Below the pieces are notes generated by a model. The model was not told the DNA's origin and searched no databases. It was given only the letters and a program-made list of their open reading frames with translations. Shown in pieces: positions 28,945 through 31,234 of a stretch of DNA of 33,832 bases. This DNA comes from Candidatus Woesearchaeota archaeon (GTDB lineage: Archaea; Nanobdellota; Nanobdellia; Woesearchaeales; GW2011-AR4): positions 1 to 33,832 of the forward strand of contig JACPMV010000007.1 of assembly GCA_016185845.1 (NCBI GenBank), in the 5' to 3' direction. Position 1 is the first letter of the stretch. Each line of letters opens with the position of its first letter. The translations under genes were made by a program, and so were the position numbers.

Positions 28945-29081
28945 AATGAAGAGCTATACAAAATGAGCAAACTGGAAAATAAACATTTAAATAGTAGCTG
29001 GAATTTCATCCCTTTCATGATTAGGCAAGATTATTATAGGTGCAGCTGTTGTTGCTAGAATTCTGCCATTGTTTTATTTAA

Positions 29082-29231
29082 GCGAGGGTGCCCAAGCGGC
29101 TAAGGGGAGCGGCTGCAAAGCAGCCATACGAGCTGAGAAATCGGCAATGAGTTTGCGCAATTCCCGCTTTATCATGGGTTCGAGAGATGCAAGCTACCGA
29201 TGCTTCGCATCCGGATTTCCCATCCCTCGCT
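29082..29231 (+). tRNA. pre-tRNA-Cys(GCA) with two introns (29119-29162 and 29185-29217)
   Basis: Acceptor GCGAGGG/CCCTCGC, D-stem CCC/GGG, anticodon stem AGCGG (29108-29112)/CCGCT (29164-29168), anticodon GCA at 29115-29117, T-stem ATGGG/CCCAT, U73. Removing 44 + 33 nt leaves a 73-nt class I tRNA. Confidence 0.9.
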
Positions 29232-29805: not shown

Positions 29806-31234
29806 ATGGTGCTTAAACTATACAACACATTAAATAGGAAAAAGGAATCATTTAAGCCAATTAAAGCCAACTTTGTGGGCATGTATTCATGCGGGCCAAA
29901 CAGGATTACTAAGTAATTCTGGGCATGCCGTCTATGATTTCGCCCACATAGGCAACTTCAGGGCTTATATATGCAGTGATATTCTTAAAAGGTACTTGAA
30001 ATACTCAGGCTTTAAAGTAAAGCACGTCATGAACATTACAGACGTAGATGACAAAACGATAAAAGGCGCAAACAAGGAAGGAATTTCTTTGAAGGAGTAC
30101 ACTTCAAGATATGAAAATGCATTCTTCGAGGATTTAAAAACATTAAACATTGACAAGGCTGATATTTTTCCAAGAGCGACTGAGCACATTCCAGAGATGG
30201 TTTCAATAATTAAAAAATTACTGAAGAATAATCTTGCCTACAAAAGCGAAGACGGCAGCGTTTATTACAACATTTCCAAGTTCAGGGGTTATGGAAAACT
30301 GTCGCATACAAAAGTAAAAGGGCTGAAGGAAGGCGCCAGGGTCAAGCAGGATTCCTATGAAAAGGGGGAAGCAAAGGATTTTGCCTTGTGGAAAGCCTAT
30401 GACAAGGAAGACGGAAATGTAGTTTGGAAAACTGAGATTGGCGATGGAAGGCCCGGATGGCATATTGAATGCTCGGCAATGTCCATAAAGCATTTAGGCG
30501 AGCATTTTGACATACATGGGGGAGGTGTTGACTTGATATTTCCCCATCACGAGAATGAAATTGCTCAGAGCGAGGGCTCTACAAAGAAGAAATTCGTAAA
30601 TTACTGGTTCCACAACGAGCATCTGCTTGTGAACGGGCAGAAAATGTCTAAGTCATTGGGGAATTTCTACACTTTAAGGGATTTATTGAATAAAGGCCAG
30701 AATCCAAAGGCAATAAGGTATTTGCTGTTGTCCGCTAATTACAGGGTTCAGCTTAATTTTACTGAAGAAGCTGTAAAAGCTGCTGAACATGCAGTGCAAA
30801 GGCTGAATGATTTCATGATAAAGCTAAAGGAAGTGAAGAATAGCAGTGGCAATAAGAATATTTCAAAATTAATCGATAAAGCCAAAAATGAATTCCAGAA
30901 AGCAATGGATGACGACCTGAACATCAGCGCTGCTTTGTCCCATATTTTTGAGTTTGTCAAGGAAATAAATACCCTGATGATGGAGAATAAGATTGGGAAA
31001 GGCGATTCCAAAAAAATAACTGATTTGATGCACGATTTTGACAAAGTTTTAGGAATTCTTGAAGAGAAAGAGGAAAAGCTGCCGGCAGAATTAAAGAAAT
31101 TGATTGATGAAAGGGAAAAGGCAAGGAAAGAAAAAGATTTTACGAGAGCGGACAGGATAAGAAATGAACTGAAGGAAAAAGGGATAGTTCTTGAGGATAC
31201 TAAAGACGGGATTAGGTGGAAGAAAATAAGTTAA
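29806..31234 (+). CDS. cysS: Cysteinyl-tRNA synthetase, interrupted by a 28-nt BHB intron (29900-29927)
   Basis: Exon 1 [31 protein letters not shown]-; exon 2 [23 protein letters not shown]...GWHIECSAM...[19 protein letters not shown]...KMSKSLGNF. Spliced length is 467 codons including stop. The ORF track starts at 29873 in the unspliced frame. Confidence 0.93.
29900..29927 (+). other. 28-nt BHB intron in cysS pre-mRNA
   Basis: Inner helix CAGGATTAC-taa-GTAATTCTG; 5' bulge AAA; central helix GGCC/GGCA (3 pairs plus one mismatch); 3' bulge TGC. Cutting after the second nt of each bulge yields TGC GGG CCA ACC GTC TAT GAT = CGPTVYD. Confidence 0.88.

What the first reader, a model, noticed from the sequence alone, without database searches (positions are those of the whole stretch)
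29082..29231. tRNA-Cys(GCA) with two BHB introns, one in the T-loop at 59/60
The 150-nt gene resolves to a 73-nt class I tRNA-Cys with U73 after removal of two introns. Intron 1 (29119-29162, 44 nt, position 37/38): outer AGCGG/CCGCT, central CTGC/GCAA (one mismatch), bulges AAA and TTC. Intron 2 (29185-29217, 33 nt, position 59/60): outer ATGGG/CCCAT, perfect 4-bp central TTCG/CGGA with one G-U pair, bulges AGA and TTT, inner GATGC/GCATC; it leaves the T-loop TTCGAGT. T-loop introns are non-canonical, are best known from some Crenarchaeota, and are easily missed by annotation pipelines.
Basis: partly seen in the sequence, partly recalled or inferred. Interest (0 to 1): 0.85.

Follow-up and report, generated by a model that had tools for sequence, protein, structure and literature searches.

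The report
Two-intron tRNA-Cys in a Woesearchaeon
The window holds the only cysteine tRNA gene found in this tiny archaeon's draft genome, broken by two introns, one of them in the T-loop; its relatives carry none to four introns in the same gene, and the ordinary-position intron hides a conserved kinked RNA fold that nobody seems to have described there.

Summary
29082-29231 is a tRNA-Cys(GCA) with bulge-helix-bulge (BHB) introns at 37/38 (44 nt) and 59/60 (33 nt). The spliced 73-mer is a complete cloverleaf with U73. ARAGORN and Rfam miss the unspliced gene. It is the only tRNA-Cys found in an 81%-complete draft genome, lies upstream of cysS, and is conserved. The organism is a woesearchaeon (DPANN).

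T-loop introns at 59/60 are already on record, so that part is a new member of a known kind. Among 29 tRNA-Cys genes of the GTDB family, 10 have the T-loop intron, and 20 order-wide copies show covarying BHB helices.

Three things go beyond the finding. (1) The gene carries 0-4 introns at five sites; two relatives have four, where the literature read here says up to three. (2) The 37/38 intron, in this window too, holds a conserved kink-turn: 40 of 54 introns across the order, shuffles at most 6, 0 of 39 at other sites. (3) In relatives, every 8/9-intron gene (21/21, against 1/21 without) has a leader segment complementary to the 3' acceptor strand. Only one endonuclease gene, alpha-type, was found per genome. 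Nothing is shown at the RNA level.

The parts
29082..29118 (+). exon 1, mature nt 1-37 (acceptor 5' strand, D arm, anticodon GCA)
   Evidence: spliced cloverleaf; conserved in relatives
29119..29162 (+). intron 1, 44 nt, position 37/38
   Evidence: BHB with outer AGCGG/CCGCT, central CTGC/GCAA (3 of 4), inner GCAG/TTGC
29120..29124 (+). GCAGC segment of intron 1, complementary to exon nt 31-35 (29112-29116), at a fixed distance from the kink-turn in the genus
   Evidence: role inferred
29130..29150 (+). kink-turn in intron 1: GA / C-stem GCTGA-GAAA-TCGGC / bulge AAT / GA
   Evidence: 40 of 54 order-wide 37/38 introns have it (shuffles mean 1.8, maximum 6; 0 of 39 introns at other positions); for coordinates
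29163..29184 (+). exon 2, mature nt 38-59
29174..29182 (+). 5' strand of the T-loop BHB: outer ATGGG (49-53) and central TTCG (54-57)
   Evidence: (MFE of the isolated arm is this BHB)
29185..29217 (+). intron 2, 33 nt, position 59/60 (T-loop)
29207..29223 (+). 3' strand of the T-loop BHB: inner GCATC, central CGGA, bulge TT^T, outer CCCAT
29218..29231 (+). exon 3, mature nt 60-73 with U73
29873..31234 (+). cysS, cysteinyl-tRNA synthetase, 453 aa, about 640 nt downstream; the order tRNA-Cys then cysS is kept in relatives
   Evidence: PF01406 E 1.8e-108, DALR_2, CysS_C; coordinates in relatives

Best explanation
29082-29231 is the functional, apparently sole tRNA-Cys(GCA) gene of a woesearchaeon. 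Its transcript folds two bulge-helix-bulge motifs, each built on a mature stem and each placing the cut between nucleotides 6 and 7 of a 7-nt loop (37/38 in the anticodon loop, 59/60 in the T-loop). The single alpha-type splicing endonuclease found in these genomes cuts both, and a tRNA ligase (probably RtcB, not searched here) joins the exons. The two motifs do not compete, so no order of removal is needed. Intron 1 also carries a conserved kink-turn that L7Ae probably binds. Shown: gene structure, conservation, covariation of the BHB helices, kink-turn conservation, presence of EndA, L7Ae and fibrillarin genes. Inferred: cleavage, ligation, L7Ae binding and any role of the kink-turn.
For: Spliced 73-mer is a complete tRNA-Cys. 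The isolated T-arm folds as the BHB at its MFE, -17.4 to -17.5 kcal/mol, z -2.67. One tRNA-Cys per genome by covariance model. 29 family members carry the gene with 0-4 introns that splice to near-identical 73-74-mers. Covariation in 20 T-loop introns: outer and inner pairs change together (inner pairs 1-3: 17, 17 and 18 of 20 paired against 7-9 in shuffles). tRNA-Cys lies upstream of cysS in nearly all relatives. EndA with PF02778 + PF01974, closest to N. equitans 3iey_A and M. jannaschii 1a79, one copy per relative. L7Ae and fibrillarin present.
Against: No RNA data. The genome is a draft (81% complete, 60 contigs), so a second tRNA-Cys could lie in the missing part. The full unspliced MFE (-57.6) does not show the anticodon BHB: a hairpin GGCTGC-AAA-GCAGCC competes, and the structure forced to hold both BHBs is -52.8. 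The 37/38 central helix is imperfect here (3/4) and 2/4 in some relatives. The two PF01974 hits in G000 lie on short contigs and are near-identical, so they may reflect mixed strains.
Confidence: 0.95

Rival explanations
1. Only intron 1 is a true intron; the T-loop insertion is a tolerated insertion or marks a decaying pseudogene, and the real tRNA-Cys lies elsewhere.
For: The genome is incomplete; the T-loop intron is absent from close relatives such as L049 (G015) and L048 (G002).
Against: No other tRNA-Cys in G000. Exons are intact and almost identical to those of relatives without the intron. Ten family members have T-loop introns of largely different sequence, all with the same BHB geometry and covarying helices, which decay would not produce. 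Other tRNAs of the same genome, Leu (L081, L082), show the same.
Confidence: 0.03
2. Assembly or binning artefact: insertions made by the metagenome assembly, or a contig foreign to the bin.
For: Metagenome-derived draft; two near-identical EndA copies on short contigs suggest some strain mixing.
Against: Independent assemblies of other species carry the same gene, intron positions and upstream element. The neighbouring cysS is 75-81% identical to that of most same-genus genomes.
Confidence: 0.01
3. The kink-turn in intron 1 makes it a box C/D-like guide RNA for 2'-O-methylation of tRNA-Cys (predicted C32 by the fifth-nucleotide rule), as the tRNA-Trp intron does for its own tRNA in Haloferax.
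For: Conserved GA / stem / RAT / GA kink-turn with covarying stem. GCAGC lies at a fixed spacing upstream of the GA on the 5' side while the 3' side varies in length in the genus. L7Ae and fibrillarin are present. Intron-encoded C/D RNAs are known for tRNA-Trp and N. equitans tRNA-Met (PMC7994747, PMC3491384).
Against: Only 5-6 bp of guide pairing; no full box C (RUGAUGA) or box D (CUGA) consensus; no second C'/D' pair; the guide-like segment differs outside the genus. A purely structural role, or a role in splicing, fits as well.
Confidence: 0.2

Closest known systems
Archaeal non-canonical BHB tRNA introns at 59/60 (Marck and Grosjean 2003, Sugahara 2008, reviewed in PMC4090602)
   Same: Same position, same 4-bp central helix with two 3-nt bulges, same multi-intron habit
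   Different: Woesearchaeota with only one alpha-type EndA gene found; in the tRNA-Cys set the non-canonical sites are the strict ones (central 4/4 in 18/20 at 59/60, 17/18 at 8/9, 14/14 at 30/31) while 37/38 is relaxed (9/50)
Three-intron tRNA genes of Pyrobaculum (PMC4390854, PMC4090602)
   Same: Several introns in one gene at scattered sites
   Different: Two relatives here carry four (L021/G007 and L073/G010); the papers read here say 'up to three' (PMC8450103, PMC4390854)
Box C/D guide RNA encoded in the tRNA-Trp intron (Haloferax) and the tRNA-Met intron of N. equitans (PMC7994747, PMC3491384)
   Same: tRNA intron with a kink-turn and a segment complementary to its own exon
   Different: Single, hairpin-capped kink-turn with D-like before C-like order; boxes degenerate; short complementarity; in tRNA-Cys
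Alpha-type EndA: homotetramer of M. jannaschii (1a79); alpha subunit of N. equitans (3iey_A)
   Same: Two-domain alpha protein, RVAHS catalytic region with following lysines, no insertion relative to 1a79 in the catalytic domain
   Different: Long N-terminal extension; serves a genome with many non-canonical introns, which the literature links to (alpha beta)2 and epsilon2 enzymes (PMC6379350)

Membership tests
tRNA-Cys(GCA) | Cloverleaf of 73-74 nt with GCA anticodon, U8, T-loop TTCRANN, discriminator U73 | tested here: met
tRNA-Cys(GCA) | Charged with cysteine; used in translation | not testable with these tools
   cysS is adjacent; no RNA or protein data
BHB intron (59/60) | 4-bp central helix flanked by two 3-nt bulges, outer exon helix and inner intron helix | tested here: met
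BHB intron (37/38) | Same motif on the anticodon arm | tested here: met
   outer 5, inner 4, central 3 of 4 (relaxed); not in the unconstrained MFE
BHB intron | Excised by EndA and exons ligated | not testable with these tools
   EndA gene present; ligase not searched
Kink-turn | Tandem GA/GA with a 3-nt bulge next to a canonical stem | tested here: met
   40/54 introns, covarying stem
Box C/D guide RNA | Boxes C (RUGAUGA) and D (CUGA) | tested here: not met
   only the GA/RATGA core is kept
Box C/D guide RNA | Second C'/D' pair | tested here: not met
   introns mostly of 36-60 nt with one kink-turn
Box C/D guide RNA | Guide of about 8 nt or more matching a target at D+5 | tested here: not met
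   sequence: 5-6 bp to nt 30-35
Box C/D guide RNA | L7Ae and fibrillarin in the genome | tested here: met
Homotetrameric (alpha4) EndA | One alpha-type gene, no beta gene | tested here: met
   (one copy per relative over the cut-off)
Homotetrameric (alpha4) EndA | Tetramer of identical subunits | not testable with these tools
   no oligomer prediction run

The most novel reading that the evidence does not exclude
The 37/38 intron of tRNA-Cys in Woesearchaeota is not passive: it is a small L7Ae-bound kink-turn RNA, a degenerate permuted relative of C/D guides, kept across the order to act in tRNA-Cys maturation. In the same set, genes with an 8/9 intron use a leader-encoded decoy strand that holds the 3' acceptor strand until splicing frees the true 5' strand.
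Probability: 0.35. Interest if true: 0.8.

Novelty: new variant of a known kind. Interest (0 to 1): 0.6.

Why it matters
One essential single-copy gene shows 0-4 introns at five sites within one family, so gain and loss of tRNA introns can be followed among close relatives. These genomes seem to manage with a single alpha-type endonuclease, and nearly all non-canonical sites in the tRNA-Cys set keep a perfect 4-bp central helix; that makes the proposed coupling between endonuclease type and intron type directly testable. A conserved kink-turn in the intron would give a tRNA intron a positive function.

Tried and rejected
(2) A first automatic solver for BHB introns mis-spliced several relatives; replaced by spliced alignment to a mature tRNA-Cys profile. 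Even so, some genes of distant families (L166, L167, L174-L176, L183, L185, L190-L193, L196, L203) are poorly parsed and are not used for claims about position, except that L167 is one of the 20 rows of the 59/60 table. (3) The idea that the leader copy of the acceptor strand is itself exon 1, with one large intron reaching to A9, was rejected: it would give no U8 in most genes, and the downstream copy fits the 3' strand better in L053, L059, L064, L248 and L249. (4) The idea that the leader hairpin is a further BHB intron: no register gave a good central helix by hand. (5) C32 methylation by intron 1: kept only as a rival, because boxes and guide length fail. (6) Paper searches for 'four introns' in archaeal tRNA and for kink-turns in tRNA introns found no prior report, but subscription papers and supplements were out of reach, and the Asgard paper PMC11291895 reports multi-intron tRNAs without a maximum in its text.

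Full report
What was checked. The gene at 29082-29231 is exactly as described. Exons 29082-29118, 29163-29184 and 29218-29231 join to a 73-nt tRNA with seven acceptor pairs, five anticodon-stem pairs, five T-stem pairs, a 3-bp D stem, U8, anticodon GCA, T-loop TTCGAGT and U73; ARAGORN calls the spliced form tRNA-Cys(gca). Neither ARAGORN nor Rfam at gathering score sees the unspliced gene. RF00005 finds 13 tRNAs at E 0.001 in the whole 1.11-Mb draft, and a looser search exposes further tRNAs broken by introns.

Where it is. Same-genus genomes found by a tRNA-Cys pattern are all titled Candidatus Woesearchaeota, so the window comes from a DPANN archaeon. The covariance model R1 finds one tRNA-Cys in G000, at this locus. 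cysS lies 640 nt downstream, and comparing coordinates shows tRNA-Cys just upstream of cysS in nearly every relative, also where cysS is a divergent version (about 47% identical).

Is the T-loop intron real? Ten of 29 tRNA-Cys genes in the family have a 59/60 intron and the rest do not. Intron sequences differ widely, yet the geometry is constant: TTCG or TTCA of the T-loop pairs with CGAA, CGGA or TGAA at the intron's end, bulges are 3 nt, and the cut leaves a 7-nt loop. In 20 such introns over the order the T-stem and inner helix change together: inner pairs 1 to 3 are paired in 17, 17 and 18 of 20 genes against 7-9 in shuffles (shuffles do not correct for relatedness). The window's T-arm alone folds into this BHB. 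The same genome has T-loop introns in two tRNA-Leu genes (L081, L082) and by eye in a tRNA-Pro (L089).

How it likely works. The two BHBs use mature stems as outer helices (anticodon stem, T-stem), so both can form on a folded precursor and neither needs the other removed. The precursor's unconstrained MFE prefers a hairpin GGCUGC-AAA-GCAGCC over the anticodon BHB (-57.6 against -52.8 kcal/mol with both BHBs forced), so intron 1 may have to refold before cutting. The genome's EndA has the N-terminal and catalytic domains, is closest to the N. equitans alpha subunit and the M. jannaschii enzyme, and relatives have one such gene each. A beta subunit like that of N. equitans would probably have been seen, since this alpha protein finds 3iey_B at E 6e-14. 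The literature gives broad specificity only to (alpha beta)2 and epsilon2 enzymes (PMC6379350). In the tRNA-Cys genes, non-canonical sites nearly all have a perfect central helix (18/20 at 59/60, 17/18 at 8/9, 14/14 at 30/31) while 37/38 is perfect in only 9 of 50. That fits an enzyme which needs strict motifs except at 37/38, where relaxed motifs on full-length pre-tRNA can be cut (reported for A. fulgidus in PMC6379350). This is inference; note also that the spliced-alignment score gave a bonus to good central helices, at every position alike.

Beyond the finding, 1: intron number. Across the family tRNA-Cys carries introns at 8/9, 21/22, 30/31, 37/38 and 59/60, from none (L046, L047) to four (L021 in G007; L073 in G010). 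Both four-intron genes splice to ordinary 73-mers. Reviews and tRNAscan-SE 2.0 state up to three per archaeal tRNA (PMC4390854, PMC8450103). The 30/31 motif uses nt 23-28 and 31-33 and the 37/38 motif uses 27-35 and 39-43, so they cannot coexist and 30/31 must go first; the 8/9 motif uses nt 1-6 and 10-11 and cannot coexist with the acceptor stem.

Beyond the finding, 2: the kink-turn. Intron 1 contains GA-GCTGA-GAAA-TCGGC-AAT-GA (29130-29150). The pattern GA, stem, loop, stem, NAT, GA occurs in 40 of 54 tRNA-Cys introns near 37/38 of at least 25 nt from the order, in 0 of 39 introns at other positions, and in a mean of 1.8 (maximum 6) of 54 shuffled introns. A looser form without the NAT rule, against dinucleotide shuffles, gave 39 of 54 against a mean of 11.8 and a maximum of 25. 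The first stem pair is GC, GU, UA or AU in different species. It also appears by eye in introns of tRNA-Phe (L088), tRNA-Ser (L091) and perhaps tRNA-Tyr (L008) of this genome. In the genus, GCAGC, complementary to exon nt 31-35, sits at a fixed distance upstream. This resembles a single C/D kink-turn in permuted order, but box C, box D, a second box pair and guide length do not meet the C/D definition. L7Ae binding is likely; function is open.

Beyond the finding, 3: leader decoy in relatives. Every gene with an 8/9 intron for which a leader was available (21 of 21) has, 10-52 nt upstream of G1, a 5-7-nt segment that pairs with the 3' acceptor strand; 1 of 21 genes without an 8/9 intron does; shuffled leaders reach this in 4.8% (Fisher 8e-11, not corrected for phylogeny). 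The segment follows the acceptor sequence (GCGAGGG, GCGGAGG, GCGGGGG), and in L252 it pairs by Watson-Crick where the mature strand has a G-U. Since the 8/9 BHB takes up nt 3-6, the segment may hold the 3' strand until splicing is done. The window gene has no 8/9 intron and no such segment.

Verdict. The finding is true and precisely described. The T-loop intron is a new member of a known kind; the gene as a whole, with its kink-turn intron and its relatives' four-intron forms, is a new variant.

Noticed in passing
L053, L059, L061, L063-L071, L073, L021, L247-L253 (leaders of tRNA genes with an 8/9 intron): A leader segment complementary to the 3' acceptor strand accompanies every 8/9-intron gene examined (21/21) and 1 of 21 others (L258); a hairpin often separates it from G1. 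Possible decoy strand that lets the 8/9 BHB form.
   Followed up: partly
L021:1431-1679 and L073:1501-1698: tRNA-Cys genes with four introns (8/9, 30/31, 37/38, 59/60) that splice to normal 73-mers.
   Followed up: yes
window 29015-29058: Element tcatgattaggcaagattattatag...gttgttgctag upstream of tRNA-Cys, conserved in many same-genus genomes; promoter, leader or small RNA unknown.
   Followed up: no
L081, L082, L089 (own genome): tRNA-Leu(UAA), tRNA-Leu(CAA) and a tRNA-Pro with T-loop introns; the first two found by script, the last by eye.
   Followed up: partly
L088, L091, L008 (own genome): Kink-turn-like segments also in introns of tRNA-Phe, tRNA-Ser and perhaps tRNA-Tyr; a wider class of kink-turn introns is possible.
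   Followed up: no
L074:1501-1656, L243: tRNA-Gly(UCC) genes in relatives with long T-loop introns.
   Followed up: no
L054:1501-1655: tRNA-Cys whose 37/38 intron carries a tandem copy of exon-intron sequence (GGGAGCGGCTGCAAAGCAGCCATACGAGCTTTTCAAGC), perhaps an intron caught growing by duplication.
   Followed up: no
L009, L010 (G000 contigs C16, C44): Two near-identical EndA genes on short contigs; probably strain mixture in the draft genome rather than two subunits.
   Followed up: partly
G019, G020, G023, G025, G026, G028, G031, G033: A divergent cysS (44-50% identical) sits at the same place downstream of tRNA-Cys, as if the synthetase gene had been swapped in place.
   Followed up: no
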